Below, in pieces: positions 22,891 through 39,837 of a stretch of DNA of 64,000 bases. The DNA lies in the IMG/VR virus record IMGVR_UViG_3300037089_000505, positions 62,001 through 126,000 of that record. The stretch is one strand, 5' to 3'. How positions within the stretch are numbered: position 1 is the stretch's first letter; the number at the start of each line of letters is the position of its first letter. The translations under genes were made by a program, and so were the position numbers. The DNA comes from a virus. The notes under the pieces are model-generated. The model worked only from the letters and a program-made list of their open reading frames with translations, had not been told where the DNA came from and searched no databases.

Positions 22891-22909
22891 TTCGAGGAAG
22901 TCATAAGTT
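22891..22909 (+). promoter_or_regulatory. Class-1 promoter element (TTCGA-N8-TAAGTT), leaderless
   Basis: TTCGA, 8 bases, TAAGTT; the ATG of the ATP-grasp gene at 22916 begins 6 bases later and lacks any Shine-Dalgarno site. Confidence 0.55.
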
Positions 22910-22915
22910 CTTTTT

Positions 22916-23773
22916 ATGTTTGCTCTCAAAGTAAATGACAGAAACTCCAAGGAGTCACAAGCTCTCGCCTATTACAACATGATGGATGGGGTGGGACTCC
23001 AATATTTTCGTAAAGCTGAAGAAGTCCCACCTGATGCTGTTCCTGCTGGTTCGGTAGAGTGGTTTCTTGAAGTCACAAGATGGAAAGTTATACCTGATTA
23101 TTATCCAGAATTTCTCAGACCATATCTCGGCCGTAAAATATGGTGGACAGACCAATGGCCGATGCATGGTGGGATCTTCGTCAAGCCAGCTGACAAGTAT
23201 AAACGCTTCACAGGCAAAATAACTACTGGTGGATATCATGGCAAGAAGAAGGGCCCATACTGGTGCTCTGAGGTTGTAAGCTTCACCAATGAGTGGCGCT
23301 TCTATGTAGCGAATGGAAAGGTTCTATATATTGGTTGGTATTGTGGTCTTAACGACGATGCAATGCCACCCGATCTTAAAGTCGATTGGCCCCAAGACTA
23401 TTGTGGTGCTGTAGATTTTGGGACCACACCTGAAGGCAAGCTACTTCTCATTGAAGCTAATGAACCATTTTCCTGCGGATGGTATGGTCACATTTCAGAG
23501 GGCCGCATTTATGGGAAGTGGTTAGAAATAGGCTACGAGTATATGAAGGAGAAAATGAAAAAGGGAACTGACGGCACTGCTGGTGCTTGGGCTTTAGAAA
23601 AAGGTGAAGACGGAAGAGTCTATATTAGCGCAGACGATCTTGGATTTTGGATCGAAGAAGCATTAAACTACACAGATGGTGCCGGAGCAAGTCTATCAGA
23701 CGATGCTAAATCCAAATTACTCAAACATCTTTATGAGCGGATCAAAGAGATAGCAGAGAAGGCTGTTCTGTGA
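22916..23773 (+). CDS. ATP-grasp-fold protein
   Basis: 285 residues. GGIFVKPADKYKRFTGK is the ATP-binding Lys loop, CSEVVSFTNEWRFYVANGKV the central strand region (R2K-like layout), and AVDFGTTPEGKLLLIEANEP the Mg-binding E-x-N core. ATP-grasp enzymes ligate a carboxylate to an amine via an acyl-phosphate; phage copies are thought to modify peptides or proteins. The C-terminal ~80 residues form an extra helical extension. The start has no SD but sits 6 bases after a promoter hexamer. Substrate unknown. Confidence 0.75.
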   Translation: MFALKVNDRNSKESQALAYYNMMDGVGLQYFRKAEEVPPDAVPAGSVEWFLEVTRWKVIPDYYPEFLRPYLGRKIWWTDQWPMHGGIFVKPADKYKRFTGKITTGGYHGKKKGPYWCSEVVSFTNEWRFYVANGKVLYIGWYCGLNDDAMPPDLKVDWPQDYCGAVDFGTTPEGKLLLIEANEPFSCGWYGHISEGRIYGKWLEIGYEYMKEKMKKGTDGTAGAWALEKGEDGRVYISADDLGFWIEEALNYTDGAGASLSDDAKSKLLKHLYERIKEIAEKAVL

Positions 23774-24236
23774 AAATAAACTCTTACAAAGAACACCTCA
23801 CATATACATTTATAGATAGCCCAGTAGGGCGTTTGCTACTCGCAGGAGACGATCGTGGTTTATGGCAATTAAGTTTCATGAGCACTAAACCAGATATTGG
23901 CGATGCGTGGTCTTTTTCAAAAAATGTTTTTCAGGGCACTCGATCACAACTCAATGCATATTTTGCAGGAGACTTACATCAATTCGAAGAAATTCCTTTA
24001 CATCTTGTAGGCACTGATTTCCAACTTGCTGTTTGGAATATTCTACTTTCTATTCCTTATGGGACGACATGGTCGTACAGCGATGTTGCCCGCGCGCTAT
24101 AGGCAAAGACATCTATCCGGCCTTCAAGGCTTATCAAAAAGACGGAACTACATTTCTCTATGATCACAAGTGGCAAAATCCAACAATCTATCAGGAACGA
24201 CTCCCAGGGAGAAGTTTCGAAGGTATGGTAATATAA
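23770..24236 (+). pseudogene. Broken O6-methylguanine-DNA methyltransferase gene
   Basis: The frame from the start at 23770 (ATG-less GTG/ATGA-type junction) gives an Ogt-like N-terminal domain and the conserved FQLAVWNILLSIPYGTTWSY SDVARA helix, then stops at TAG 24100-24102. Restoring frame by removing two bases in the CGCGCG run yields RAIGKDIYPA, so a 2-base insertion is likely. The new frame runs to 24236 but never shows PCHR, so the methyl-accepting Cys is lost. The rest (AFKAYQKDGTTFLYDHKW) is not alkyltransferase sequence: a deletion or fusion occurred too. Confidence 0.7.
24216..24234 (+). promoter_or_regulatory. Class-1 promoter element (TTCGA-N8-TAATAT), leaderless
   Basis: GTTTCGA, 8 bases, TAATAT, then 5 bases to the ATG of DNA ligase at 24240. 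No Shine-Dalgarno site is present. Confidence 0.6.
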
Positions 24237-24239
24237 ACT

Positions 24240-25580
24240 ATGGACGAACTTAAACAACTGAACAAACTGGTCACCGAACTCAACACCACGAACTCCACCA
24301 CAGACAAAACTGAGATCCTGGCCAAGTATCCGGAATGCAAAAAACTCCTGAGCTGGACCTATGATCCCTTCATCCAGTTCTACGTCAGCTCGGACAACAT
24401 TCTCAAGATGGAAAGCCAGATCAAACCCAACGGAGTTCATACCGACATCTTCGGCCTCATGGCTGAACTCAACTCCAGAAAGTATACTGGCCACGATGCC
24501 ATCGCCTACATCCTTCAGTTCATTTCCGAAAACAAGATTTACCGGGATCTCATCCTCCGCATACTCGATCGGAACCTCAAGACTCGGGCCGATGCCAAAC
24601 TCATCAACAAAGTTTGGCCGGGAACAGTCCCTTCTTTCGAAGTGGCTCTGGCCCACAAATACAACGACTTCAAACAGAAGGTGGATTTCACCAAAGACAC
24701 TTGGTTCGCTTCCAGAAAACTGGACGGAGTCCGGGTCATCACGGTCATCTCCTCAAACGGCGATATCAAATTTCTTTCCCGCAAAGGAAAAGAATTCACC
24801 ACTCTGGACAATGTCCGCAAAGAGCTCCAGAAGAAACTCGAACCATATCGCAATGACTTCGATTTCTTCAAGGGCGGCTTGGTTCTCGACGGAGAAATGT
24901 GCATCGTCAACCAGAACGGCGATGAAAACTTCACGGACATGATCAAGCTCATCCGCCGGAAGGACTACACGGTCGAACATCCCAAGTATAAGATCTTCGA
25001 TATGATGCCTTTGGTAATCTTCGAAGAGAAAGAACCACCCAAAGGAATTCGCAATATCAGGCTGACTCATCGAATCAATCTCATCAACCTCTTCAAAGAT
25101 CAGGGCATCTTCAATGGGGGCATCTTGGACCCGGTGGAGCAGAGGAAGATCGGAACCGAGAAAGACCTCACTGACTTCATGGCTGAAGCCAATTCCAAGA
25201 ATTGGGAAGGACTCATCCTCCGGAAGGATGTCCCCTACAAGGCCGGCCGCTCTTCGGATATGCTCAAGGTCAAGGAAATGCAGGACGATGAATTCGTGGT
25301 CCAGGACGTGGAGATGGGGCCCATCCGGATCATCAAGGGCGGCAAGGAAGTCACCGAGACAATGCTCTCCGCCATCAAGATCCCTTACAAAGGTAACGTG
25401 GTCTCGGTCGGATCTGGCTTCTCCATCCAGCAGAGACAGGAATTCTACAAGGATCCTTCTAAGATCCTGGGCAAAACGGTCACCATCAAATACTTCGAGG
25501 AAACTATCAATGAGCAGGGGCTCTACTCCCTCCGGTTTCCGGTCCTCAAGACCATCTACGATGGAGACCGGGATGTTTAA
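24240..25580 (+). CDS. ATP-dependent DNA ligase
   Basis: 446 residues. An N-terminal helical region (~1-130) of T4/T7-like phage ligases, then the adenylation domain with ASRKLDGVRV (motif I, Lys160), a GEMCI strand, FDMMP, NWEGLILRKD (motif IV) and MLKVKEMQDDEFVV (motif V), ending in an OB domain. It seals nicks in DNA during replication and repair. Codon use is strongly C-ending (AAC, ATC, TTC), unlike most neighbours and like the RNA ligase at 706, suggesting high expression. Start set by position 5 bases after a promoter hexamer. Confidence 0.9.
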   Translation: MDELKQLNKLVTELNTTNSTTDKTEILAKYPECKKLLSWTYDPFIQFYVSSDNILKMESQIKPNGVHTDIFGLMAELNSRKYTGHDAIAYILQFISENKIYRDLILRILDRNLKTRADAKLINKVWPGTVPSFEVALAHKYNDFKQKVDFTKDTWFASRKLDGVRVITVISSNGDIKFLSRKGKEFTTLDNVRKELQKKLEPYRNDFDFFKGGLVLDGEMCIVNQNGDENFTDMIKLIRRKDYTVEHPKYKIFDMMPLVIFEEKEPPKGIRNIRLTHRINLINLFKDQGIFNGGILDPVEQRKIGTEKDLTDFMAEANSKNWEGLILRKDVPYKAGRSSDMLKVKEMQDDEFVVQDVEMGPIRIIKGGKEVTETMLSAIKIPYKGNVVSVGSGFSIQQRQEFYKDPSKILGKTVTIKYFEETINEQGLYSLRFPVLKTIYDGDRDV

Positions 25581-25716
25581 AGAAACTCTAAAAACAGTCC
25601 TTGCTATTTTTGCCATCGTAATAATGGCGGCGCTTCTCCTCTTTCTTCTTTGGACTGTTTTTCATCCAATCGACCGTTTTGTCGGGACAAAAATACAGGC
25701 AGTAGAAAATGTCTAA
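25573..25716 (+). CDS. Single-span membrane peptide
   Basis: 47 residues beginning MFKETLKTVLAIFAIVIMAA; one transmembrane helix and a short polar tail. It overlaps the ligase stop by 8 bases. First of a run of tiny membrane proteins up to 28958. Confidence 0.55.
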   Translation: MFKETLKTVLAIFAIVIMAALLLFLLWTVFHPIDRFVGTKIQAVENV

Positions 25717-25828
25717 GGCAAAGCGATCTGAGCTCATCAAACTGATTGAGCGGGCAGTAATAGTTCAGGGCGTCACAAAGACTTGGCTTGAGGATGCGGT
25801 CCTCGTCTTAAAGAAGGAATCGAAATGA
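25709..25828 (+). CDS. Very short basic protein
   Basis: 39 residues (MSKAKRSELIKLIERAVIVQ start), predicted helical. Overlaps both neighbours by 4-8 bases, typical of the coupled genes here. No function known. Confidence 0.5.
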   Translation: MSKAKRSELIKLIERAVIVQGVTKTWLEDAVLVLKKESK

Positions 25829-26028
25829 AGATGAGAAATGGAATGGAAATCAAGGATCATATCAGTATCACTATGGACAAGGAAGAATATGAACAGGCAG
25901 CCGGGGTCGAGCTGACTGATCGGCAGTGGCAGTCGGTGGTCCGTAGGATTCGGGATCCCAATCGGTCCGAGCTTTATAGCATCCTGAATCATATCACTGG
26001 CGTCATCAACGAAATGAGGAGGAAGTAA
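25825..26028 (+). CDS. Short hypothetical protein
   Basis: 67 residues, ATGA-coupled upstream and TAATG-coupled downstream. DHISITMDKEEYEQAAGVEL followed by a helix with RQWQSVVRRI; similar sequences occur as small phage proteins of unknown role. Confidence 0.5.
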   Translation: MKMRNGMEIKDHISITMDKEEYEQAAGVELTDRQWQSVVRRIRDPNRSELYSILNHITGVINEMRRK

Positions 26029-26324
26029 TGGGGACTAGAACCAAGATGCTTCGGCTCCAGAGAATGGGGCTGATGGAGGAAAGACGCCAGGATCGGCTCA
26101 GAGCATACTGGCTCGCCGAACGAGACCGCACTGAGAGAGAGCAGGGCTACGCAATGCACAAATTCTATGAAGATCAAGCGCAGAAGCGGCTCGCAGAGGA
26201 AAAGGCAAAGAGGTTGTCTACCCGCATTCGGAAGTGGTGGAATGGGCTCTTCTTCAAAGACGCCTCTATTCCTTGCGGCATCGGAATCGATCACAAAGAG
26301 GATATGCCTCCGGAGGGGAAATGA
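26028..26324 (+). CDS. Basic helical protein
   Basis: 98 residues, Arg-rich and almost wholly helical (ERRQDRLRAYWLAERDRTER). Probably nucleic-acid or membrane-surface associated. ATGA overlap with the next gene. Confidence 0.5.
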   Translation: MGTRTKMLRLQRMGLMEERRQDRLRAYWLAERDRTEREQGYAMHKFYEDQAQKRLAEEKAKRLSTRIRKWWNGLFFKDASIPCGIGIDHKEDMPPEGK

Positions 26325-26848
26325 CACTTTCAGACAAGATCTTCAGATTCATAGCCGTCCTCATTGTCGTCGCTCTTTCTTTCGGCGGCGTCTTTTTTAT
26401 CGACGGTCTCCTCACTGGAGATTGGCCGACCAAACACGATCCCAGTATCACCTTCAACCTCATCGGCAGCCAGGTCTACACTTACCATTCGGTAGGTACT
26501 ATTGTTATCAATCCTCATTTTACCGTAGAAGGAAGTGATAAGCCGGGAGTTCCTGCTATTCAATATAGCGACAAATATTGGTCAACCGATAAAGAACATC
26601 CCGAAAATGACAGTACGACTCTTCTCGTTTCTGACTCTGAAAAGGTATTTATTCCTCGGCGTAATTACGTCTTGACTGACTCTAAGGGCAAAAGCTTTTA
26701 TTCAAACGGACCTTTGGTTATCACGCCCAATGACGTCATAAATGGTCGAACAGCTCCGACCATTCGTTTTCAAGAGAAAGGCAAAAATCCGAACTACGCA
26801 GCCGTCTTTATTCTCAGAGGCAAAGCTTTTGTGGAGGTGGCAAAATGA
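26321..26848 (+). CDS. Membrane-anchored beta-rich protein
   Basis: 175 residues from the ATG at 26321. One N-terminal transmembrane helix (~8-30, FIAVLIVVALSFGGVFFI), then a beta-rich domain probably outside the cytoplasm (YTYHSVGTIVINPHFTVEGS; YAAVFILRGKAFVEVAK). A switch in base composition occurs inside the gene: GC-rich to about 26460, AT-richer after. Unknown function. Confidence 0.6.
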   Translation: MTLSDKIFRFIAVLIVVALSFGGVFFIDGLLTGDWPTKHDPSITFNLIGSQVYTYHSVGTIVINPHFTVEGSDKPGVPAIQYSDKYWSTDKEHPENDSTTLLVSDSEKVFIPRRNYVLTDSKGKSFYSNGPLVITPNDVINGRTAPTIRFQEKGKNPNYAAVFILRGKAFVEVAK

Positions 26849-27063
26849 TGTTCTTAAAAATTCTTTGGGGCGTTGTAAAGATCGCCCTCATAGCACTACT
26901 CATAGCGCTAGCCGCAGTAGTATTCGTTGCCATCTTTGGCAGCCTATCCTTTGTATGGTTTGCTGTTTTGGCGATCATCTACATCATACTGCTGATCACT
27001 GGCATAATTTTTCTTGTTCGGTGGTTGGCTGAAAAGGGCTGGTTCGATGAGTTTCTTTTTTAA
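26845..27063 (+). CDS. Small two-helix membrane protein
   Basis: 72 residues, two transmembrane helices (~9-31, ~36-60) and a short tail. ATGA overlap with the gene before; GGTGG upstream. Confidence 0.55.
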   Translation: MMFLKILWGVVKIALIALLIALAAVVFVAIFGSLSFVWFAVLAIIYIILLITGIIFLVRWLAEKGWFDEFLF

Positions 27064-27076
27064 GAAAGGAAGGGAC

Positions 27077-27178
27077 ATGAAAGCTTTTTACTCGAATCAC
27101 GAGAGCCGCATTTTGCACATTGCGGGGCTTGTAGCGATTGCTGTTATATTCATCGGTATCTTGGGACTCGTAATATGA
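27077..27178 (+). CDS. Single-span membrane peptide
   Basis: 33 residues (MKAFYSNHESRILHIAGLVA start): a short polar segment and one transmembrane helix. GAAAGGAAGGG gives a strong ribosome site. ATGA overlap with the next gene. Confidence 0.55.
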   Translation: MKAFYSNHESRILHIAGLVAIAVIFIGILGLVI

Positions 27179-27351
27179 AAAGGCGCTACAGGATCTTTCT
27201 CGTAATTGTTATTTTGCTCACCTTGGGCAATATCTTCATGTTGGTCATAAGCAATAATTGGCCAGGAAGAGTTTCCAGTATCATAGGATGCGCCGGCGGA
27301 ACTGTAGCGGCAATAGCTTGTATTCGATTAATGAAGAGCGCAGTTGACTGA
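27175..27351 (+). CDS. Small two-helix membrane protein
   Basis: 58 residues (MKRRYRIFLVIVILLTLGNI start), basic N-terminus, helices at ~7-25 and ~35-52. ATGA-coupled to the upstream peptide. Confidence 0.55.
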   Translation: MKRRYRIFLVIVILLTLGNIFMLVISNNWPGRVSSIIGCAGGTVAAIACIRLMKSAVD

Positions 27352-27598
27352 TTTCTTTTTCAGAGAAAATCAATTAACGCTCCACAAATATTATCGCTTT
27401 CAGATTTCTAGATGGGAAGCTGATTGTAGAAAGTTAGCTGCATTTCGCATATGGAACTATAAGAAGACTGATCTTGCTGGATTTGGGTTTGTCCTTGAGT
27501 TACTTGGTTTGAACATCGTCCTTGAATTTTACGACAACAGGTATTGGGATCGCGAACACGACCGCTGGAAGAGGAATAAACATGAATCCGAATATTAA
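27344..27598 (+). CDS. Hypothetical protein (TTG start)
   Basis: 84 residues from TTG at 27344, overlapping the upstream stop. Alternating aromatic and charged residues, with FGFVLELLGLNIVLEFYDNR and a basic tail. Many phages carry small proteins with this GFGFxLELLGFxIxLEFYDxR strand pair; function unknown. Confidence 0.5.
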   Translation: MTDFFFRENQLTLHKYYRFQISRWEADCRKLAAFRIWNYKKTDLAGFGFVLELLGLNIVLEFYDNRYWDREHDRWKRNKHESEY

Positions 27599-27821
27599 AC
27601 CAGTCCTTGACGACGCAGCAAAACTGATCGACGCAGACTCTGGCGGAATGAAGCTCATGGAGCTCTTGCCAGCTATTCTCGTGATTCATAGAAACATCGA
27701 TCCTGATGACTTGATCGACGGGCTCAAATGCGATTCTCGTTTCAAGGTCTTTGAATACTATTGGCGGCTTGACGACAATACTTTGCGTCTCAAATATTTC
27801 GTGACCTTGACTTACAAATAG
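27582..27821 (+). CDS. Hypothetical protein
   Basis: 79 residues from the ATG at 27582 (AGAGGAA upstream). A helix (LDDAAKLIDADSGGMKLMEL) then an alpha/beta half (FKVFEYYWRLDDNTLRLKYF). Not recognised. Confidence 0.5.
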   Translation: MNPNIKPVLDDAAKLIDADSGGMKLMELLPAILVIHRNIDPDDLIDGLKCDSRFKVFEYYWRLDDNTLRLKYFVTLTYK

Positions 27822-27829
27822 GAGAAACT

Positions 27830-27997
27830 ATGTCAAACTTGTTTTTTCAGCTTTTTTCCTTTTTCCTTTTTCTCTTCATTGTTGCTGTTGTCCTTTACTT
27901 GACGATAATGCTTTCAGCGATCTTTGCCGTAATTGTTCTTTGTGTTCTAGTTGTCATGTGCATTATTTATCCGATCTATCTTTGGTTTAAGAGGTAA
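27830..27997 (+). CDS. Small two-helix membrane protein
   Basis: 55 residues, extremely hydrophobic (FFQLFSFFLFLFIVAVVLYL and LSAIFAVIVLCVLVVMCIIY) with a KR tail. Possible holin-like size and topology, but no further evidence for that. GGAGAAA upstream. Confidence 0.55.
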   Translation: MSNLFFQLFSFFLFLFIVAVVLYLTIMLSAIFAVIVLCVLVVMCIIYPIYLWFKR

Positions 27998-27999
27998 AA

Positions 28000-28419
28000 A
28001 TGGAGCAGCATCCAAGAAATCCATACGTAGCAGTAGACGCCATCATCCGGGTGAAAGGTGGCGCTAAAATCATTTGTATCAAGCGCAAGAACCCTCCATA
28101 TGGTTTGGCTCTTCCTGGGGGTTTTGTCAATTACGGCGAAAGCGCCGAAGATGCAATCAAACGAGAAGTGATGGAAGAAGTCGGCGTCCGGTTAGATCTC
28201 CTGGCCCAGTTCCATACTTACTCGGCACCTGACAGGGATCCTCGTCATCACACACTCAGCGTAGTATTCATCGCTTGGTCAGAGGATGAACCGAAAGCGG
28301 GAGACGACGCCGCTGAAGTCCTTCTTGTCAATACGCTTGATATTCCAAAGCTTGAGTTCGCTTTTGATCACGCAAAAATCCTAGAGGACTGGAGAGGACT
28401 CGGACAGTATCGACACTGA
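28000..28419 (+). CDS. Nudix hydrolase
   Basis: 139 residues. A complete Nudix box: GGFVNYGESAEDAIKREVME followed by EVGV. The opening VDAIIRVKGGAKIICIKRKN and the closing FAFDHAKIL resemble ADP-ribose pyrophosphatases and the Nudix half of NadM proteins, so ADP-ribose or a nucleotide derivative is a plausible substrate. It may belong with the NAD-salvage gene at 31225. A class-1 promoter overlaps its last codons. Confidence 0.85.
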   Translation: MEQHPRNPYVAVDAIIRVKGGAKIICIKRKNPPYGLALPGGFVNYGESAEDAIKREVMEEVGVRLDLLAQFHTYSAPDRDPRHHTLSVVFIAWSEDEPKAGDDAAEVLLVNTLDIPKLEFAFDHAKILEDWRGLGQYRH

Positions 28420-28427
28420 TTTATTAT
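28409..28427 (+). promoter_or_regulatory. Class-1 promoter element (ATCGA-N8-TATTAT)
   Basis: GTATCGA, 8 bases, TATTAT; overlaps the end of the Nudix gene and serves the gene at 28447, which has its own SD (AACGGAGG). Confidence 0.6.
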
Positions 28428-28446
28428 AAAGGTAACGGAGGAAGCA

Positions 28447-28701
28447 ATGGTCAAAGATTTTTTCTGGAACCTGTTTTGGAAGCCGGTAAAGTCAAATCTG
28501 ATACTGGCAGCTCTTTTCCTTGTAGAGATTTTCTGGTTTCTTGTCCTGGAATGGGAGCGATGGATCCACATCGCATTTCTCATCGGAACTGGCATTCTTT
28601 CAATCTACCTCAACGATGGCCGTTACTTCGTGGCGGCTGCCGGTGGGGCCACAGTCTACAGTCTCCTTTGGTTCAAGCTGGCCGTCTCGAAACGGTGGTA
28701 A
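28447..28701 (+). CDS. Small membrane protein
   Basis: 84 residues with about three hydrophobic helices (ILAALFLVEIFWFLVLEW; HIAFLIGTGILSIYL; AAGGATVYSLLWFKLA). It forms a short unit between a class-1 promoter and a strong terminator. Confidence 0.6.
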   Translation: MVKDFFWNLFWKPVKSNLILAALFLVEIFWFLVLEWERWIHIAFLIGTGILSIYLNDGRYFVAAAGGATVYSLLWFKLAVSKRW

Positions 28702-28722
28702 ACTAGAGGCGGCAGAGATCTG

Positions 28723-28750
28723 GGCCGGTGGAAACACCGGCCTTCTTTTT
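28723..28750 (+). terminator. Rho-independent terminator
   Basis: GGCCGGTG-GAAA-CACCGGCC stem-loop with a GNRA-type tetraloop followed by TTCTTTTT. Confidence 0.85.
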
Positions 28751-28766
28751 ACGAAAGGAAGCAGAG

Positions 28767-28958: not shown

Positions 28959-28966
28959 GAGAGACA

Positions 28967-29737
28967 ATGACTGATTCACTTGGCGATAGGATGAAAGGCA
29001 ATTACGAAAACCGTTCTCGGTTTTACCTGACTCGAAGAACGCCTGTCATCATTCGTGTAGATGGCCGAGCCTTTCACACTCTGACTCGCAACTGCGAAAA
29101 GCCCTTTGATGAGAGTTTGAGCAAATGCATGATCGAGACTACGATCGGACTCTGTGAAGAGATTCAAGGCGCAAAATGTGCCTACGTCCAAAGCGACGAG
29201 ATCTCAATTCTGATTACCGATTATGATCGTCTTAGCTCTGGCGCCTGGTTCGACTACAACCTCCAGAAGATGGCTTCGGTCTCAGCTTCCATCGCCACTC
29301 TAGCTTTCGGTCTTTCTATAAGAAAAATCGCTGGCGATTGGAACGATTGGAAAAGTCAAGCCAAAGCTACATTCGACTCTCGCGTTTTCAATATTCCGAG
29401 AGAAGAGGTGACCAACTATTTCGTTTGGAGACAGCAAGACTGGACTCGCAACAGCCTTGAAATGCTGGCTCGAGCCCACTATTCACACAAACAGCTGGAC
29501 AAAAAGAATGGTGCAGCAATGCACGAGATGCTCCACGAGAGGGGCGTCAATTGGGCGGATCTCCCTGACAAGTGGAAGAATGGAAGTCTCATTGTCAAAG
29601 AGTCTATTCTCATAGACCTGAATCAGGACATGGTAGCTTCAAACATGCGGTCTGAGTGGAAGCCGAAAGATCCATGTCCCATTTTCAAGAACGACCGAGA
29701 CGCTATCGAGAAGCTTCTCATACCTGAGGAGGTATAA
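28967..29737 (+). CDS. Thg1-like 3'-5' polymerase (tRNA-His guanylyltransferase family)
   Basis: 256 residues from the ATG at 28967 (AGGAGAG upstream). VIIRVDGRAFHTLTR and YVQSDEISI carry the metal-binding Asp residues; FDSRVFNIPREEVTNYFVWR followed by QQDWTRNS is the Thg1 signature region, with HEMLHERGVNWADLPDKWKN further on. Thg1 adds G-1 to tRNA-His; bacterial and phage Thg1-like proteins repair 5'-truncated tRNAs by templated 3'-to-5' addition. Together with the RNA ligases here it suits tRNA repair. Family call very firm; specific role inferred. Confidence 0.92.
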   Translation: MTDSLGDRMKGNYENRSRFYLTRRTPVIIRVDGRAFHTLTRNCEKPFDESLSKCMIETTIGLCEEIQGAKCAYVQSDEISILITDYDRLSSGAWFDYNLQKMASVSASIATLAFGLSIRKIAGDWNDWKSQAKATFDSRVFNIPREEVTNYFVWRQQDWTRNSLEMLARAHYSHKQLDKKNGAAMHEMLHERGVNWADLPDKWKNGSLIVKESILIDLNQDMVASNMRSEWKPKDPCPIFKNDRDAIEKLLIPEEV

Positions 29738-29738
29738 C

Positions 29739-30983: not shown

Positions 30984-31185
30984 GATCATAAACTGGCTCT
31001 CTAAAAGAATTGATGAAATGAGCCAACAGGGCTATTGGTATTTTGTTCTCATAACTGCCTGGTGCATCGGCTGGATCATTGCCGATATTGCAACCGGTGG
31101 ATGGCCTTGGGCTATTGGACTCGCAATCATCTATATACCCTTCGTGATTGCTTTTTATAGAAAAATTCGCAAGAAGAAATCCTGA
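30976..31185 (+). CDS. Small two-helix membrane protein
   Basis: 69 residues; helices at ~20-39 and ~44-60 and a basic tail (RKIRKKKS). Overlaps the preceding gene by 8 bases. Confidence 0.5.
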   Translation: MTKIINWLSKRIDEMSQQGYWYFVLITAWCIGWIIADIATGGWPWAIGLAIIYIPFVIAFYRKIRKKKS

Positions 31186-31187
31186 GC

Positions 31188-31206
31188 TTCGACAAAACGA
31201 TAGTAT
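31188..31206 (+). promoter_or_regulatory. Class-1 promoter element (TTCGA-N8-TAGTAT)
   Basis: GCTTCGA, 8 bases, TAGTAT, before the PncB gene, whose AAAGGAG lies downstream of the predicted start point near 31213. Confidence 0.6.
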
Positions 31207-31224
31207 CAATCAAAGGAGAGCTAA

Positions 31225-34112: not shown

Positions 34113-34447
34113 TTAGTGAATTTCTTAAATTTTATGCGTCTCGGTTTCATCTCATAGATCTTCCGAATACAAGAAAACCTGGAGAAGAAGTTTATAAAGT
34201 AGACGATTGGTCTAAAGTAACGCCAGTTGATATTAAAGGAGATTACTTGGCAGTCTTTGCGGGCTTTGCCTATCCAAACGATACTGACTCTAGCCAGACA
34301 AATTTAATTCATATTAAAGAAGCATATGACCTTGTGGGGAATGGCGAGTGCGTTCGTATCATTTTGGATCCTGGTAAGATGAATAATTTTGCGACACTCG
34401 TAGAGGGTAGGGAAAAGACTTTGACTCTACTTAAACTTAAAAGCTGA
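34109..34447 (+). CDS. Hypothetical protein
   Basis: 112 residues, mixed alpha/beta (KGDYLAVFAGFAYPNDTDSS; GECVRIILDPGKMNNFATLV). ATGA overlap with the gene before. Not recognised. Confidence 0.5.
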   Translation: MISEFLKFYASRFHLIDLPNTRKPGEEVYKVDDWSKVTPVDIKGDYLAVFAGFAYPNDTDSSQTNLIHIKEAYDLVGNGECVRIILDPGKMNNFATLVEGREKTLTLLKLKS

Positions 34448-34452
34448 TGGGC

Positions 34453-34471
34453 TTCGAAGTAAATCTATAAT
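34453..34471 (+). promoter_or_regulatory. Class-1 promoter element (TTCGA-N8-TATAAT), leaderless
   Basis: GCTTCGA, 8 bases, perfect TATAAT, then 5 bases to the ATG at 34477. No SD. Confidence 0.65.
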
Positions 34472-34476
34472 CAATC

Positions 34477-34662
34477 ATGGCCAAATTCCGGGTCAGACTC
34501 AGAGCGAAAGTTCAACTTTCAACTGGGAAGAAATACTTAGACTTAGAGGATCTACTCGTTTTCTTCAAGTTAAGCAAAGAAGTCTGTTATGGTTTAACGG
34601 CTGATCAAGTTTACGATTACCTCATCAAAATTATGGAACGTTGGAAGGAAGAATCTCTATGA
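34477..34662 (+). CDS. Short hypothetical protein
   Basis: 61 residues: basic strand-rich start (FRVRLRAKVQLSTGKKYLDL) then helices. Predicted leaderless from the promoter at 34453. First gene of the unit that ends before the split RNA ligase. Confidence 0.5.
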   Translation: MAKFRVRLRAKVQLSTGKKYLDLEDLLVFFKLSKEVCYGLTADQVYDYLIKIMERWKEESL

Positions 34663-34850
34663 CAGAGCAAGAAGCAAATCAACTCGTTCGAGACTTATTT
34701 TCTGGTCTCACCTGCTATATTCGCAATATAGAAGTAGAAGCTATTTATGGCGATTACGTTTTGGTACATCACAAAAGCCATCCCGAATGGTGTGGTCGAA
34801 TGACGGGTCTGCAAACGAAGCATACCACGCTCTTGTTCACAAAGATATGA
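34659..34850 (+). CDS. Short hypothetical protein
   Basis: 63 residues from the ATG at 34659 (ATGA). A helix (QEANQLVRDLFSGLTCYIRN) followed by beta strands (AIYGDYVLVHHKS) resembling a small SH3-like domain. Unknown. Confidence 0.5.
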   Translation: MTEQEANQLVRDLFSGLTCYIRNIEVEAIYGDYVLVHHKSHPEWCGRMTGLQTKHTTLLFTKI

Positions 34851-34969
34851 AACGGGGTAGATCAATTAGCGCAGAACGCGAAGCAGTTCTTTACATTTCC
34901 GGACGGCTTAACAAAGAGAAACGAGCTCTAATTACCGAGAGAGTAAAGCAGCCTTTTGTTTCGAAGTAG
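34847..34969 (+). CDS. Very short basic protein
   Basis: 40 residues (MKRGRSISAEREAVLYISGR start), ATGA-coupled. Its last codons overlap the class-1 promoter at 34960. Confidence 0.45.
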   Translation: MKRGRSISAEREAVLYISGRLNKEKRALITERVKQPFVSK

Positions 34970-34978
34970 CTATATAAT
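34960..34978 (+). promoter_or_regulatory. Class-1 promoter for the N half of split RNA ligase
   Basis: GTTTCGA, 8 bases, TATAAT, then 6 bases to the ATG at 34985. No SD, so a leaderless mRNA is predicted. The same element with the same 6-base spacing precedes the C half (36939). Confidence 0.7.
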
Positions 34979-34984
34979 TACTCT

Positions 34985-35563
34985 ATGGAACTCTTGAAAT
35001 TCATCGACACCAATTCTGATTGGAAAGAAAAAATCCAAGCCGAACCTTTTTGTGTCAAGGTTGAGGAAGACGAACACTACGTCCTTCTGAAATACGATCA
35101 GATTCATTCTGACTTCAATATTCCCATGGTTCGGGAATGTCGGGGTATCATCCTTACCAAAGACACTCATGAAGTGGTTTGCCATCCCTTCGACAAATTC
35201 GGCAACTATGGTGAGGGATACTGCCCAGAGATAGACTGGGCTACTGCTCGAGTTCAGTCCAAAATCGATGGCTGCTGTGATGCCGATGTTAAACTCATTA
35301 CCAAAACCGGTGAAAAGGCTATAAAAGAAATCGTTGAGGGCGAAGAAGTCCTCACTTTCAATTTCGAAAAAGACCAACCAGAATTTAATGTTGTAAAGGC
35401 AACTTCCAAAAAATTCAACAACAACGATTGGTATGAAATAGAACTAGAAAATGACCAGAAAATAAAACTGACTGGTAATCATCGTGTTTGGGTAGAAAAT
35501 CTGAAATGTTATCGCCAAGTAAAAGATCTGAAAGGCGATGAGGAGGAGGTTAAATTTATATGA
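34985..35563 (+). CDS. T4 Rnl1-type RNA ligase, N-terminal half fused to N-intein
   Basis: 192 residues. Residues 1-96 are the N-extein: the start of a T4 Rnl1-type ligase up to the active-site motif QSKIDG (catalytic Lys93). Residue 97 is the intein Cys1; CCDADVKLITKTGEKAIKEI is block A and IKLTGNHRVWV block B with the TxNH-type His166. The frame ends at 35563 with no C-intein, so the protein must splice in trans with the product of 36964. The cut falls exactly after KIDG, so neither half can form the AMP-lysine site alone. Confidence 0.9.
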   Translation: MELLKFIDTNSDWKEKIQAEPFCVKVEEDEHYVLLKYDQIHSDFNIPMVRECRGIILTKDTHEVVCHPFDKFGNYGEGYCPEIDWATARVQSKIDGCCDADVKLITKTGEKAIKEIVEGEEVLTFNFEKDQPEFNVVKATSKKFNNNDWYEIELENDQKIKLTGNHRVWVENLKCYRQVKDLKGDEEEVKFI

Positions 35564-35943
35564 TTTTAAAAATAATTCTAACAGTAGTAATGTTAGTAGT
35601 TGCATTAGTAGTTGGATTTTTACTACCCAATAATATAAGCTTTTTAGGCTCGCTTATTTTATTGGTAGTATTCTATGTAGTCTATTTTGTTTTTATTAAG
35701 CCAGTTATAAAAATGATCGACAAAGAGCTTCATTCATTCGAGCGTATAAGCAAAAAAATTATTGCAAAATATGGTACCCCAGATGAGCGAGGAATTTCTA
35801 TTTTTCCAGAAGAAAAAATGAGAGACGTGGGAGTATTAGAAGAGATTACGTGGACATGGCATAAAAAAGAGGGCGACTGGAAAGTCGTTTTTTATAGAGA
35901 TAAAGATGGATGGGCAGATTATGATGATGCTGCAGAAAGTTAA
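35560..35943 (+). CDS. Membrane protein gene inside the fractured ligase locus
   Basis: 127 residues, ATGA-coupled to the N-intein gene and preceded by GAGGAGG. Two transmembrane helices (~2-22, ~28-50), then a soluble domain (IIAKYGTPDERGISIFPEEK; ITWTWHKKEGDWKVVFYRDK). It is AT-rich. Its presence between the halves of a split gene beside the endonuclease is unexpected; it may be cargo carried with the mobile element. Function unknown. Confidence 0.65.
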   Translation: MILKIILTVVMLVVALVVGFLLPNNISFLGSLILLVVFYVVYFVFIKPVIKMIDKELHSFERISKKIIAKYGTPDERGISIFPEEKMRDVGVLEEITWTWHKKEGDWKVVFYRDKDGWADYDDAAES

Positions 35944-35973
35944 GCGTCCCATCAACTTTTCATTGAATTTGAC

Positions 35974-35984
35974 AAGATAACTCA
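35974..35984 (+). promoter_or_regulatory. Class-2 element AAGATAA-N4-ATG
   Basis: CAAGATAACTCA directly before the ATG of the endonuclease gene at 35985; same 4-base spacing as at 53471, 54196, 55821, 57167 and 63147. Confidence 0.5.
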
Positions 35985-37007
35985 ATGAGAAATATAAAAG
36001 AAAGTGTTTGTGTTTGCGGACAAAAAATTACAAACATATCAGCGATAAATCATAAAAGACATTGCCCGGTCTTTTTAAAATACCGTGATAAGTGTCTCAC
36101 TAAAGAATTTATTCAAAAAGAATATATTGAAAAGGGTCGGTCTTTAGAAGAAATACACAGAGAGCTTTCGATCCCAAGAAAATATATTGAAAGCAAAGTT
36201 TTAGAGTTTGGTTTCCAATTAAGAAACATAAAACAATCTAAAGCAACTCAATACACAAAGAACAAAACGATAGCGACTACTATTGATAGATACAGCGATG
36301 TAAATGTTTTGGGCAAGAATTCGCCAATTTACAATGAAAGAAATAAGACAGTAAAGCAAAGGTATGGCGTAAATAACGTATTTCAGCTGGCTGCCGTGAA
36401 AGAACAAATCACCAATAGTCATCTTGAAAAATACGGCAAGAAAAGAATTACTAATGGACAAAAAATATCAACAACGAGAAAAGAAAAATTTAAAGCAGGC
36501 GAATATAAATATTTCAGTAGAGCAATGTCAGAGACAGCCAAAAGCACTTATAATAAATTAAGCGAAAAAGAAAAAGTAGACAAAATGGTTCATATGAGAA
36601 AGTTTATAGACGTGAATTCTTTTATGTCAAGACCAGAAGAGAAAGTGGCGTTGATATTAACAGAGCTTAAGATTGAATTTCAACATACACTTTTCATAGG
36701 TCCATTTTCTTACGATTTTCATATCAAACATACGCCCGTAGTAATTGAAGTTCAAGGAGATTATTGGCACGCTTCCCCAGACAGATATGAAGCTAAAGAT
36801 TTACTTAGCAGACCGGGTAATAAGCTTGTTGAAGCTCAAGAGATATGGGTCAAAGATGCGGCTAAGAGGGCATACATCGAAAAATATGGATACAAAGTTT
36901 TTTACATTTGGGAACACGAACTCAAAGATTTGAAGAGTATCGAAGGTAGGTTAATATCTCTGTATGAAGAGCATAAAAATAAAAAGCATCAAGAAGATTA
37001 CAAATAA
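35985..37007 (+). CDS. Vsr-like (EDxHD-type) homing endonuclease
   Basis: 340 residues. N-terminal Cys/His finger (CVCGQKITNISAINHKRHCP), an HTH-like segment (SLEEIHRELSIPRKYIESKV), then repeated DNA-recognition blocks (RYGVNNVFQLAAVKEQITNS). The C-terminal domain (SRPEEKVALILTELKIEFQH; YDFHIKHTPVVIEVQGDYWH; AKRAYIEKYGYKVFYIWEHE) has the Vsr/very-short-patch nuclease fold with catalytic D-E-H residues. Vsr-like nucleases are the ones reported between split-intein halves in phage fractured genes. It is AT-rich, and its 3' end contains the promoter for the C half. Confidence 0.82.
   Translation: MRNIKESVCVCGQKITNISAINHKRHCPVFLKYRDKCLTKEFIQKEYIEKGRSLEEIHRELSIPRKYIESKVLEFGFQLRNIKQSKATQYTKNKTIATTIDRYSDVNVLGKNSPIYNERNKTVKQRYGVNNVFQLAAVKEQITNSHLEKYGKKRITNGQKISTTRKEKFKAGEYKYFSRAMSETAKSTYNKLSEKEKVDKMVHMRKFIDVNSFMSRPEEKVALILTELKIEFQHTLFIGPFSYDFHIKHTPVVIEVQGDYWHASPDRYEAKDLLSRPGNKLVEAQEIWVKDAAKRAYIEKYGYKVFYIWEHELKDLKSIEGRLISLYEEHKNKKHQEDYK
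36939..36957 (+). promoter_or_regulatory. Class-1 promoter for the C half of split RNA ligase
   Basis: GTATCGA, 8 bases, TAATAT, then 6 bases to the ATG at 36964; embedded in the coding sequence of the endonuclease. No SD, leaderless mRNA predicted. Confidence 0.65.
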
Positions 37008-37857
37008 CTCGAAGAGATATGATGTCCAAACTGACAACGGCAATTTCTTCGCGAATAATATCCTCGTCCACAACTCTCTCATCAAGGTTTGGTACCATAA
37101 CTTCTGGCACGTCTCTTCCAACGGTATGATCGACGCTGGGTCTTGCGATCTCTCTCTTCCGTTCGGAAGCTACAAGACGCTCGGCGATCTTTTCAGCCAG
37201 GCCTTTTTCTTCAAACACAAGAAGAGCTTGAATGATCTCAACAAGAACTACACCTATATGTTCGAGCTCATCAGCCCCTACAATCGGGTAGTCATTCCTT
37301 ACACCGAGATTGACATTTACCATATCGGCACCAGGGAAACGAAGACTGGAATAGAGCTTATCATTGATATCGGAATTCAGAGACCGAAAGAATTCAATCT
37401 TCATACTCTGGATGATGTAATCGCCGCGGCAAAAGTCCTCCCCTTCAATGATGAAGGCTACGTGGTGGTTGACGGAAAATGGAATAGAGCGAAGATCAAG
37501 TCGCCAGCTTATGTCGCCGTCCATCATCTCAGGGGCGAAGGCAATCTTTCCTACAAGCGAGTCCTGGTCTTGATCATGTCCAATGAACATACTGAGTTTC
37601 TGAACTACTTCCCTGAGTATGTTGAAGTATTCGGTCAGGTAGAAAAGAAGTATAAAGACTACGTCGAGAAACTCCTTCAGTCTGCAACTGACGCAATTCA
37701 GTATAAGAGCTTGCCTCGAAAAGAATATGCCATGTGGGCAACCAAACAGGTTGAGCCGGCCTTTCTTTTCCAACTCCTTGATGGAAGGATCAAGACGGCT
37801 GAGGAATACTTGGAACAGGTCGGGCCCGAAAAGGTTGCCAAGAAGTTGGGATACTAA
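36964..37857 (+). CDS. C-intein fused to C-terminal part of T4 Rnl1-type RNA ligase
   Basis: 297 residues. Residues 1-37 are a C-intein: block F (RYDVQTDNGNFFANNILVHN) ending in the splice His-Asn, followed by Ser38 as the +1 nucleophile. From Ser38 the extein continues the ligase: SLIKVWYHNFWHVSS joins KIDG to give KIDGSLIKVW. Then come YMFELISPYNRVVI (motif IIIa), NDEGYVVVDGKWNRAKIKSP (motifs IV and V) and the helical C-terminal domain. Spliced ligase would be 356 residues, close to T4 Rnl1 (374). The extein is GC-richer than the intein DNA. It overlaps the endonuclease gene by 44 bases. Confidence 0.9.
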   Translation: MKSIKIKSIKKITNNSKRYDVQTDNGNFFANNILVHNSLIKVWYHNFWHVSSNGMIDAGSCDLSLPFGSYKTLGDLFSQAFFFKHKKSLNDLNKNYTYMFELISPYNRVVIPYTEIDIYHIGTRETKTGIELIIDIGIQRPKEFNLHTLDDVIAAAKVLPFNDEGYVVVDGKWNRAKIKSPAYVAVHHLRGEGNLSYKRVLVLIMSNEHTEFLNYFPEYVEVFGQVEKKYKDYVEKLLQSATDAIQYKSLPRKEYAMWATKQVEPAFLFQLLDGRIKTAEEYLEQVGPEKVAKKLGY

Positions 37858-38087
37858 TGCTGAGCAAATTTCATACATTCATCTTGAAGCACTTTTTTAA
37901 AATATTAGTGCTGATGATGTCTATCTTTGGTATTGCAATTGGTCTTGGGTTGAACTACTTTTTCGGCCTCTCGCTTTTCGTATGTATTTGTTCAGGTGTA
38001 GTTCTCGGACCACACTTGACTTTCGTGATTTTATTTGCTATCTTTCTTTTGCCATATACTCAGGGTAAACTTAAACCTAACGCATAA
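37857..38087 (+). CDS. Small membrane protein
   Basis: 76 residues, TAATG-coupled to the ligase half. Two hydrophobic helices (ILVLMMSIFGIAIGLGLNYF; VLGPHLTFVILFAIFLLPYT). Function unknown. Confidence 0.5.
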   Translation: MLSKFHTFILKHFFKILVLMMSIFGIAIGLGLNYFFGLSLFVCICSGVVLGPHLTFVILFAIFLLPYTQGKLKPNA

Positions 38088-38106
38088 TTGAAGGAGAGGT
38101 AAACAA

Positions 38107-38934
38107 ATGATTCCTGGTATCCCCCTTCATCATATTTTCGATTGGTTCTTTCAACCTGTCAAAGAGTCGCCTGAAGACGACGATATGCTCTACTACATGC
38201 ACATTTCAAATCCCAAATATAAGACGCCCACCAATCTGGCCAAGCTTTGGGACGACCTCTGGAATGTAGTTTGGCATCGCAATTTCGGAACATATGGACG
38301 GTTCACTCACGATCTTTATTGGGGGACTCGTTATCTCCTTCAAAGAATTTTCAGAGCTGATCACACTCCTGACATTGAGCTTTTTGATATGATCTATCCT
38401 ATGACCAAGAGGATTCTACCCAAGCTCAAGGCCTTCAGAAGGTATGCTGGCGAACACGGTCATGGTTACCCTACATACTTTTGCGATTGGGCGCCCACCA
38501 AGCACGACCCCAAGTACGGCGGAATAGGCATGACCAAAGCTCAATATGACAAAGCTAAGAAAGAAGGAAAGTTCGCCGGCGGAGGACCTAAAGCTTGGCT
38601 CAAGACCATTGATGAAATGATTTTCGGTTTTGAACGGATTCTCTGCTACGACAACATCAAAACCAAAGAAGCTGAGGTTTTCCTCAAGAAATATCATCTC
38701 CCTAACATTTGGGCTAAGACCGCCAAAAATCGCCACATGTCCTATTACTATAGGAGCAAGAGTGGCAACTTCATGAGCTCTGGTGCTCCCATCAAGAAGA
38801 GCGAAGAGAAGAAATACACTTTCTTGGGCAAACATACCTATTATCATAACTACGACGCAGAGAATAAAATCTACGAAAGGGCACAGAAGGGTTTGGATCT
38901 TTTTGCTAAGCACTTCTTGTCGCTATGGGATTGA
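38107..38934 (+). CDS. Large hypothetical protein, His/Tyr-rich
   Basis: 275 residues, no signal peptide. Rich in His, Tyr, Trp and Lys, e.g. LWNVVWHRNFGTYGRFTHDL, RYAGEHGHGYPTYFCDWAPT and TAKNRHMSYYYRSKSGNFMS. A helical core seems likely. SD GGAGAGG. The length, conserved-looking His clusters and lack of family match make it one of the larger orphans here. Possibly a metal enzyme; not established. Confidence 0.65.
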   Translation: MIPGIPLHHIFDWFFQPVKESPEDDDMLYYMHISNPKYKTPTNLAKLWDDLWNVVWHRNFGTYGRFTHDLYWGTRYLLQRIFRADHTPDIELFDMIYPMTKRILPKLKAFRRYAGEHGHGYPTYFCDWAPTKHDPKYGGIGMTKAQYDKAKKEGKFAGGGPKAWLKTIDEMIFGFERILCYDNIKTKEAEVFLKKYHLPNIWAKTAKNRHMSYYYRSKSGNFMSSGAPIKKSEEKKYTFLGKHTYYHNYDAENKIYERAQKGLDLFAKHFLSLWD

Positions 38935-39143
38935 CCGAGTCAGCAAAGAAATTTACTCTTCATCTCCTCAAGGGTCATATTTGTTCTAACTGCAAATATG
39001 GTATAATTCATAACAGCTACCAAATGCGGGAAGGCAGACGTGTTCCGGGGTGGACGTGGTGTGTAACCAATAATATGGATGTAGATCCAAGCGATAGTTG
39101 TAAACGATATGACAGGAAAGAAAGAGATACTCCGCCTCCTTAA
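38925..39143 (+). CDS. LLKG-leader Cys protein, tandem copy 1
   Basis: 72 residues. AKKFTLHLLKGHICSNCKYG shows the leader then CxxC; a GWTWCVTNN segment and a C-terminal SCKRYDRKERDTPPP complete four Cys. The last codons are also the start of copy 2 in another frame. Probably one zinc site. Unknown role. Confidence 0.6.
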   Translation: MGLTESAKKFTLHLLKGHICSNCKYGIIHNSYQMREGRRVPGWTWCVTNNMDVDPSDSCKRYDRKERDTPPP

Positions 39144-39372
39144 AGGTTGTAGTTGCGAAAATTGTCGCTTTTCTTTTGGACAAGAAAAGACAACTGTAAA
39201 AATTCCCTATGAACACGATCGTTCAATAGGCGGTAGAAAGAATGTTACATCTTGGATTTGGTATTGCAATAATAAATTTCAACATCGAGATCTTGACAAA
39301 GTAGTTTGCATAGAACCTACTGAATATTGTGAAAGATATGACAGAAAAGAAAGAAACACTCCGTCTTCTTAA
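39109..39372 (+). CDS. LLKG-leader Cys protein, tandem copy 2
   Basis: 87 residues. MTGKKEILRLLKGCSCENCR, then SWIWYCNN and YCERYDRKERNTPSS. Overlaps copy 1 by 35 bases and copy 3 by 35 bases, in the same relative frames, so the overlap was duplicated with the gene. Confidence 0.65.
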   Translation: MTGKKEILRLLKGCSCENCRFSFGQEKTTVKIPYEHDRSIGGRKNVTSWIWYCNNKFQHRDLDKVVCIEPTEYCERYDRKERNTPSS

Positions 39373-39583
39373 AGATCATTCTTGTCTCACCTGTAAATTT
39401 AGTTGGAAGTCTAAAGGAGTTCTTGTTCCTTTTTATGGTGACACTGGAATACCAATGCCTACTCCACGAATTTGTGATTACGATAACATAGTGATTCACC
39501 GTCCTCAAGGTAGAGAATATGCAATGACTAAAGAAGTAAACGATTTATACTACTGTCCTTTATATGAAAAGCTTCGTGGCTAA
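39338..39583 (+). CDS. LLKG-leader Cys protein, tandem copy 3
   Basis: 81 residues from the ATG at 39338 (by analogy with copy 2). MTEKKETLRLLKDHSCLTCK, then ICDYDN and YYCPLYEK. The C-terminus differs from copies 1 and 2 and does not enter a further copy. Confidence 0.6.
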   Translation: MTEKKETLRLLKDHSCLTCKFSWKSKGVLVPFYGDTGIPMPTPRICDYDNIVIHRPQGREYAMTKEVNDLYYCPLYEKLRG

Positions 39584-39591
39584 CATATATT
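39573..39591 (+). promoter_or_regulatory. Class-1 promoter element (TTCGT-N8-TATATT), leaderless
   Basis: GCTTCGT, 8 bases, TATATT, then 6 bases to the ATG at 39598, which lacks an SD. One mismatch (T for A) in the upstream box. Confidence 0.5.
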
Positions 39592-39597
39592 AAACAC

Positions 39598-39837
39598 ATG
39601 GCTATTACATTAGGCATCATTGCTATACTCTATTTAGCAGGTGGCATCACTTTCGGTATGATCTTTGATCGTGAAGCCGAAAACTTTTGCGACCTCTTCG
39701 AAGGCACTGCTGGTCGTTTCATGAATTGGATTTTCTGGGCTCATAACGGTGGCACCTATTTGGTCTTCATCGGACTTGCTACTATGATATGGCCCATCTC
39801 GGCTATACTCACAGCTATTTGTTATTTCAGAGCATAG
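39598..39837 (+). CDS. Small two-helix membrane protein, pair member 1
   Basis: 79 residues; helices at ~3-21 and ~50-76 around a central acidic loop (REAENFCDLFEG). The IWPISAILTAICYF end is echoed in the next protein (LIWPIGAVVAAIIY): a tandem duplication. Confidence 0.55.
   Translation: MAITLGIIAILYLAGGITFGMIFDREAENFCDLFEGTAGRFMNWIFWAHNGGTYLVFIGLATMIWPISAILTAICYFRA

What the first reader, a model, noticed from the sequence alone, without database searches (positions are those of the whole stretch)
22891..39600. A leaderless-mRNA subset with 5-6 base spacing to ATG
At 22916, 24240, 34477, 34985, 36964 and 39598 the start codon comes 5 or 6 bases after the -10-like hexamer and no SD is present, whereas neighbouring coupled genes often have strong SDs. 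The start point would fall on the ATG. ATP-grasp protein, DNA ligase and both RNA-ligase halves are among them, suggesting a translation class suited to 70S initiation during infection.
Basis: partly seen in the sequence, partly recalled or inferred. Interest (0 to 1): 0.7.

Follow-up and report, generated by a model that had tools for sequence, protein, structure and literature searches.

The report
Phage promoter placed on start codons
A large bacterial virus known only from environmental DNA appears to carry its own two-part promoter that, in front of about a dozen genes, sits so close that the messenger RNA would begin at the start codon; relatives keep the promoter but do not always keep that placement.

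Summary
The six starts exist as described. The hexamer alone is not evidence: TANNNT shows no excess 5-6 nt before ATG. 9 of 29 P1 sites have an ATG of a 60-codon or longer ORF 5-6 nt downstream (expected 0.33, p=3e-11). Five of the six sites are strong; 22916 is weak. Three other ligase lineages (54-57% identity) keep P1: two with leaderless spacing, one with a Shine-Dalgarno leader. A second motif, AAGATAA-N4-ATG, marks 13 more starts. So 5' ends at or near these ATGs are well supported, from sequence only. A separate 70S translation class is not: the same promoter serves SD-led genes and tRNAs, and one orthologue swaps modes. Leaderless phage mRNAs from -10-adjacent promoters are known (phiYS40); I found no published match to the P1 box in a limited search. 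Host and reading factor are unknown; host RNA polymerase is inferred.

The parts
22888..22915 (+). P1 (weak): AGG TTCGAGG-N6-TAAGTT-N6, then ATG 22916 of R2K ATP-grasp gene 22916-23773
   Evidence: rank 49 of 289,582
24213..24239 (+). P1: AGT TTCGAAG-N6-TAATAT-N5, then ATG 24240 of DNA ligase 24240-25580
   Evidence: orthologous promoters in L014, L094 and L106
34450..34476 (+). P1: GGC TTCGAAG-N6-TATAAT-N5, then ATG 34477 of a 61-aa ORF
34957..34984 (+). P1: TGT TTCGAAG-N6-TATAAT-N6, then ATG 34985 of RNA ligase N part + intein N part
36936..36963 (+). P1: AGT ATCGAAG-N6-TAATAT-N6, then ATG 36964 of intein C part + RNA ligase C part; lies inside the 3' end of the endonuclease ORF 35985-37007
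39570..39597 (+). P1 variant: AGC TTCGTGG-N6-TATATT-N6, then ATG 39598 of a 79-aa ORF
28406..28446 (+). P1 (ATCGACA-N6-TATTAT) with SD leader, ATG 28447
31185..31224 (+). P1 (TTCGACA-N6-TAGTAT) with SD leader, ATG 31225 of nicotinate phosphoribosyltransferase; a P1-like box with SD leader read by eye before its orthologue in G002
44021..44064 (+). P1 (ATCGACA-N6-TATTAT) with SD leader, ATG 44065
56330..56373 (+). P1 (TTCGACA-N6-TATACT), leader with AAGG, ATG 56374 of an HNH endonuclease gene
61078..61099 (+). P1 (TTCGAAG-N6-TACAAT) upstream of two tRNA-Gln genes, the first at 61130-61203
13111..13132 (+). P1 (TTCGAAA-N6-TATATT) upstream of gene 13194-13727; a P1 also lies upstream of its homologue in G005
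35974..35984 (+). P2: AAGATAA-N4, then ATG 35985 of the endonuclease gene between the RNA-ligase halves
53471..53481 (+). P2: AAGATAA-N4, then ATG 53482
54196..54206 (+). P2: AAGATAA-N4, then ATG 54207
55821..55831 (+). P2: AAGATAA-N4, then ATG 55832
57167..57177 (+). P2: AAGATAA-N4, then ATG 57178, just after tRNA-Thr
63147..63157 (+). P2: AAGATAA-N4, then ATG 63158 (two alternative starts lie upstream in frame)
10656..10678 (+). P2 element AAGATAAT followed by GGAGG and ATG 10679 (SD-led use of the same element)

Best explanation
P1 is a promoter of this phage lineage. It has a conserved block AGT-TTCGA(A/C)(G/A) at about -28 to -19, exactly 6 nt, and a sigma-type -10 hexamer TANNNT at -12 to -7, with no conserved -35. 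RNA would start about 6-7 nt after the hexamer. Where an ATG lies 5-6 nt after the hexamer, the mRNA is leaderless or nearly so and must be translated without an SD; where the ATG is 16-31 nt away, the leader is short and usually carries an SD. A second element, P2 ((C/A/T)AAGATAA(T/C)T), behaves the same way with ATG 4 nt after AAGATAA. Shown here: the motifs, their fixed spacing, strand bias, position relative to starts, and conservation. Inferred: that they are promoters, where the 5' ends lie, that host RNA polymerase reads them (perhaps with an unrecognised phage factor), and leaderless translation.
For: Spacing and strand specificity. Distances from hexamer to start are bimodal, 5, 6 and 8 nt or 16-31 nt (one TTG at 10 nt before a tRNA aside). 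In SD-led sites a start 6-7 nt after the hexamer leaves the whole SD in the RNA, e.g. CAATCA|AAGGAG before 31225. tRNA genes follow at record position 140981 and window 61130. Three other DNA-ligase lineages, 54-57% identical to the window's, keep TTCGA-N8-TANNNT at the same place; one of them (L094) was hit by a search for the DNA pattern alone. P2: 12 + and 1 - strand sites in this record against reversed-pattern controls of 0 and 1; 3 and 3 against 0 and 0 in G003. A matrix from 12 SD-led or tRNA sites ranks 10 of 12 leaderless sites in the top 28 of 289,582 positions.
Against: No mapped 5' ends. The factor that would recognise P1 was not found: no Sigma70_r2, Rpb1, gp55-type family or RNA-polymerase-like D.DGD frame, though the record may be a fragment. 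With a 5-nt gap a start 6 nt after the hexamer would lie one base inside the AUG. Eight of the 12 ligase loci (L107-L114, all 37-44% identical) have no P1 before the ligase. The PARP gene, leaderless-type here, is SD-led without the box in G002. Motif discovery and matrix seeds came from the same sites, so some tests are partly circular.
Confidence: 0.77

Rival explanations
1. The leaderless genes form a functional class, translated by 70S ribosomes that the phage favours during infection, as proposed for Thermus phage phiYS40.
For: 23 + strand leaderless-type ATG starts were checked in this record (11 P1, 12 P2). DNA ligase keeps the spacing in two other lineages. PMC3594737 (passages) reports that phiYS40 raises IF2 and lowers IF3. 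The TTCGACA subtype is skewed towards SD-led sites.
Against: The same promoter drives SD-led genes and tRNAs. The ligase orthologue in G005 has an SD leader behind the same promoter. In G005 8 of the 10 coding-strand P1-rule sites with a start have a clear SD leader and one is leaderless-type. No IF3 homologue.
Confidence: 0.15
2. The boxes are promoters or factor sites but the RNA starts elsewhere; the ATGs are reached on leadered or read-through mRNA by SD-independent initiation.
For: Some leaderless-type ATGs lie just after or inside an upstream + strand ORF (36964 inside 35985-37007), so read-through RNA is likely. No TSS data.
Against: Fixed 5-6 nt distance, bimodal distances and SD retention in the sister sites all fit a start 6-7 nt after the hexamer.
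Confidence: 0.12
3. TTCGAAG is an operator for a phage regulator that overlaps -10-only host promoters, rather than part of the promoter.
For: TTCGAA is palindromic; -10-only leaderless promoters are known in Deinococcus-Thermus (PMC12340547, section 7 and passages).
Against: Spacing to the hexamer is exact (k=8 only), which a loosely placed operator would not need; many sites have TTCGACA, which is not palindromic.
Confidence: 0.15
4. Chance: -10-like hexamers are common in this AT-rich phage and the reader picked ones near ATGs.
For: TANNNT alone shows no enrichment at 5-6 nt; 22916 has a poor hexamer.
Against: Second box, spacing test, strand bias and orthologue conservation.
Confidence: 0.03

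Closest known systems
Middle/late promoters of Thermus phage phiYS40 (Sevostyanova et al. 2007; original not held; described in PMC3594737, passages)
   Same: Phage transcripts mostly leaderless; by recall, a single -10-like element and no phage RNA polymerase.
   Different: Here P1 has a conserved upstream block at a fixed 6-nt spacing, there is a second motif family, and the promoter also serves SD-led genes and tRNAs. Host unknown; kinship to phiYS40 not tested.
-10 region adjacent to ORFs in Deinococcus-Thermus (PMC12340547; section 7 and passages read)
   Same: TANNNT about 6-7 bp before the ORF with leaderless mRNA.
   Different: Bacterial promoters; the TTCGA block is not described in the parts I read, and the general TANNNT excess is absent here.
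T4 middle promoters (MotA box plus -10; recalled)
   Same: -10 hexamer plus one upstream box instead of a -35.
   Different: Recalled MotA box is centred near -30 with a different sequence and a longer gap; the P1 gap is 6 nt. A MotA homologue was not searched.
Late promoters of T4 (TATAAATA, gp55; recalled) and of phiKZ/AR9 (PMC5312081, passages)
   Same: Short phage-specific elements near the start site; P2 resembles a -10-only late promoter.
   Different: Sequence differs; no gp55-type family or Rpb1 found; AR9 leaders are 26-491 nt.

Membership tests
Leaderless phage transcripts from -10-adjacent promoters (phiYS40-like) | -10-like element 5-8 nt before the start codon and no SD | tested here: met
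Leaderless phage transcripts from -10-adjacent promoters (phiYS40-like) | Mapped 5' end at the AUG | not testable with these tools
   no RNA data
Leaderless phage transcripts from -10-adjacent promoters (phiYS40-like) | Single -10 element with no further promoter box (recalled) | tested here: not met
   P1 has a conserved upstream block; P2 does fit, with only weak conservation outside the element
Leaderless phage transcripts from -10-adjacent promoters (phiYS40-like) | Shift of host IF2/IF3 levels in infection | not testable with these tools
   no IF3_C homologue in G000, G002, G003, which does not speak to host factor levels
T4-type late transcription | gp55-family sigma | tested here: inconclusive
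   no match for phrog_234 and phrog_12791 at E<=10 in G000, G002, G003; records may be fragments
Phage multi-subunit RNA polymerase promoters (phiKZ/AR9) | Phage-encoded RNA polymerase | tested here: inconclusive
   no PF00623 match and no RNA-polymerase-like D.DGD frame in G000; possible fragment
Sigma-70 -10/-35 promoters | Conserved -35 at about 17 nt from the -10 | tested here: not met
   no conserved columns upstream of the AGT-TTCGA block over 24 sites
Deinococcus-Thermus -10-adjacent ORF pattern | Genome-wide excess of TANNNT about 6-7 bp before ORFs | tested here: not met
   counts at 5, 6, 7 nt are 13, 13, 26 among 2577 TANNNT, other distances 8-19; the 26 at 7 nt are mostly ATGs inside longer ORFs

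The most novel reading that the evidence does not exclude
A lineage of large environmental tailed phages carries its own bipartite promoter, read by host RNA polymerase steered by an unrecognised phage factor. By sliding that promoter 12-17 nt relative to the ATG the phage switches a gene between leaderless and Shine-Dalgarno initiation, with box subtypes (TTCGAAG versus TTCGACA) matched to the two modes.
Probability: 0.3. Interest if true: 0.75.

Novelty: new variant of a known kind. Interest (0 to 1): 0.55.

Why it matters
It gives a testable promoter definition for an uncultured group of large phages, so transcription units can be read from sequence alone. It also offers a natural experiment: the same gene, DNA ligase, sits behind the same promoter with and without a leader in related phages, which would let one ask what leaderless initiation is good for in infection. 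It shows too that a -10-like hexamer near an ATG is not evidence by itself, and what extra element makes it so.

Tried and rejected
Generic -10 before ATG: rejected as sole evidence (no peak for TANNNT at 5-6 nt). Phage sigma or RNA polymerase: PF04542, PF00623, phrog_234, phrog_12791 and a D.DGD scan gave nothing. IF3: nothing. Host: a tmRNA-tag pattern and a NAPRTase scan in genome contigs gave none; the nearest annotated NAPRTase hit lies on a bacterial-looking contig, so it does not name a host. G004 (NAPRTase 69%) showed no P1 in the 21 kb read and no P2 excess. The exact pattern TTCGAAG-N6-TATAAT-N5/6-ATG in IMG/VR gave 27 stretches, about what I estimate for chance from the size of the collection (estimate not computed by a tool); one was the orthologous ligase, and of the other 26 most had short ORFs and none was followed up beyond. 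A TANNNT-N7-ATG bump (26 sites) was mostly internal to longer ORFs and dropped. Four P1-rule sites without a usable start (record positions 85651, 90686, 116468, 120439) stay in the denominator of 29 but in no class. Paper searches: 'TTCGA' with 'phage promoter' and 'consensus' gave two papers, seen as listing and start of abstract only, neither plainly about such a promoter; the listings showed no description of P1, in a library that misses most subscription journals. No structure prediction was run.
Full report
What the window is. The window is bases 62001-126000 of a 143,947-base virus record, possibly a fragment. A tail sheath, ribonucleotide reductase, SbcC-like protein and DnaB-like helicase mark it as a large contractile-tailed phage. 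It carries a tmRNA and tRNAs. The host is unknown. Gene starts come from the ORF listing and my own simple gene caller, so counts of genes are approximate.

The observation. All six ATGs and hexamers are there. Reading the six upstream regions side by side showed a second shared block, TTCGAAG or a variant, 24-25 nt before each ATG. Over the record the combination is AGT-TTCGA(A/C)(G/A), 6 nt, TANNNT, called P1 below. The hexamer with its distance is not by itself unusual: 2577 TANNNT on the + strand show 13 and 13 ATGs at 5 and 6 nt, within the general level. The box makes the difference. With [AT]TCGA-N(k)-TANNNT, k=8 gives 27 on the + strand and 3 on the -, the other 23 spacings 1-11 on the + strand. 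The pattern TTCGAM-N7-TANNAT gives 11 forward and 0 reverse against 1 and 0 for the reversed pattern.

Placement. Of 29 + strand rule sites ([ATC]TCGA-N8-TANNNT), 11 have a start codon 5, 6 or 8 nt after the hexamer (one of them GTG), 12 have an ATG 16-31 nt after it, mostly with an SD, 2 precede tRNA genes, and 4 have no usable start. The 39598 site, with TTCGTGG, falls outside the rule and makes a twelfth leaderless-type site. 9 of 29 have an ATG opening at least 60 codons at exactly 5-6 nt, expected 0.33, p=2.7e-11; at pooled wrong spacings 1 of 127. For the 11 P1 ATG starts checked, none has an in-frame alternative upstream and 10 of 11 have an in-frame stop within 30 nt. A 4-base SD test flags 2 of these 11 and 1 of 12 P2 starts, in bases that a transcript starting at the ATG would not contain.

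Inferring the 5' end. In the SD-led sites a start 6-7 nt after the hexamer keeps the SD in the RNA, in one case starting right at it (31188: CAATCA|AAGGAG). At record position 140951 a tRNA-Asn gene starts 11 nt after the hexamer. The same start would lie on the A of ATG for 6-nt gaps, and one base into it (or on it, if the distance is one shorter) for 5-nt gaps. This is inference; no 5' end was mapped.

A second motif. A start-anchored k-mer scan found AAGATAA ending 4 nt before ATG: 12 on the + strand against about 0.5 expected. A pattern search gave 12 forward and 1 reverse in this record against controls of 0 and 1; in G003 3 and 3 against 0 and 0; in G001 (a near copy) 3 and 1 against 0 and 0; in G002 1 and 1 against 2 and 0; in G004 0 and 1 against 1 and 2. 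The element also precedes SD-led genes at variable distance, e.g. 10656, which argues for transcription rather than translation. 9 of 12 + strand P2 starts have an in-frame stop within 30 nt; 3 of 12 have in-frame alternatives upstream. One P2 site stands before the endonuclease gene between the RNA-ligase halves.

Relatives. The DNA ligase was followed in all 12 loci. P1 stands before the ligase in L103 (100% identical), L104/L014 (57%), L105/L094 (55%) and L106 (54%). The first three have leaderless spacing; L106 has an SD leader. The eight others (L107-L114, 37-44% identical) show no P1 before the ligase. Alignment of the three leaderless-type upstream regions shows the P1 block and -10 standing out from little other conservation. 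L094 was found first by the DNA pattern alone, as 1 of 27 hits in IMG/VR. In G002 the NAPRTase gene has a P1-like ATCGAGA-N6-TATAAT with an SD leader, as in the window (read by eye); the PARP gene, leaderless-type here, is SD-led in G002. In G005 the rule gives 16 sites on the coding strand and 3 on the other; 10 of the 16 have a start, 8 of these with a clear SD leader, one leaderless-type (a CCA-adding-enzyme-like protein, named by eye), and one further site lies directly before a tRNA-Tyr gene. With TTCGAM-N7-TANNAT G005 is less clean: 1 forward and 6 reverse against controls 4 and 2; G006 (the L094 record) gives 4 and 0 against 0 and 0, G007 1 and 1 against 0 and 0, G008 none.

A third motif in relatives. 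G003 has GCATAT(A/T)T 34 times against 1 reversed control, 8 of 34 with a long-ORF ATG at 6-8 nt (expected 0.44, p=1e-8); in the window's record it is weak, 21 against 7, 1 of 21. The gene that follows it at record position 34222 (343 aa, just before the SbcC-like gene) has it with leaderless spacing here and, at 8423, in G002. So the leaderless layout recurs with another motif in relatives.

Who reads P1. No sigma-70 region 2, Rpb1, gp55 family or RNA-polymerase-like motif was found. Host RNA polymerase, perhaps with a phage factor, is the default inference. Upstream of the AGT-TTCGA block no column is conserved over 24 sites, so there is no conserved -35.

Comparison. phiYS40 transcripts are mostly leaderless, with a rise of IF2 and fall of IF3 (PMC3594737, passages). 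PMC12340547 (section 7 and passages) describes TANNNT 6-7 bp before ORFs in Deinococcus-Thermus. PMC5312081 (passages) notes that phage transcripts are often leaderless. This case is the same kind, with a new upstream block and mixed use, hence new variant of a known kind.

RNA-ligase halves. They are real: phrog_562 matches profile 23-108 in 34985-35563 and 107-360 in 36964-37857, with intein parts at the junction. Each half has its own P1, and the endonuclease gene between them has P2.

Noticed in passing
window 34985-35563, 35985-37007, 36964-37857: RNA ligase split by a split intein, with a homing-endonuclease-like gene (MTES_1575/phrog_3339) between the halves; resembles the 'fractured gene' arrangement (recalled). 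Each half has its own P1, the endonuclease P2.
   Followed up: partly
L045 1-139 (G003) and L113 about 5893-6010: DNA-ligase relatives whose C-terminal part is preceded by an intein C-terminal-like stretch ending in HN before C (read by eye), suggesting that the ligase is intein-split in other phages.
   Followed up: no
G003 (L045-L050), e.g. record positions 54495, 66285, 39730 (+): GCATAT(A/T)T, 34 sites against 1 reversed control, often 6-8 nt before ATG: a further leaderless-type motif.
   Followed up: partly
G003 54474-/54495+, 66262-/66285+, 106619-/106651+; G000 18099-/18111+ (record positions): Back-to-back AAGATAA on one strand and GCATATTT on the other, as if divergent leaderless promoters.
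   Followed up: no
window about 15940-16020, - strand: Short direct repeats containing GCATATTTTCGGG, seen as three GCATATTT hits 23 and 45 nt apart.
   Followed up: no
record position 57057 (L010:17457-18689): WGR-PARP-like gene in the phage, leaderless-type P1 here and SD-led in G002.
   Followed up: partly
CAKLQH020000008.1 (L052): The record named Acinetobacter phage MD-2021a looks like a bacterial chromosome contig (hut, glmS, phoR genes).
   Followed up: no
window 28967-29737 and 50368-50720: Thg1-like tRNA-His guanylyltransferase gene, and a tmRNA whose tag AENFDADFALAA had no match to a related degenerate pattern in genome contigs.
   Followed up: partly
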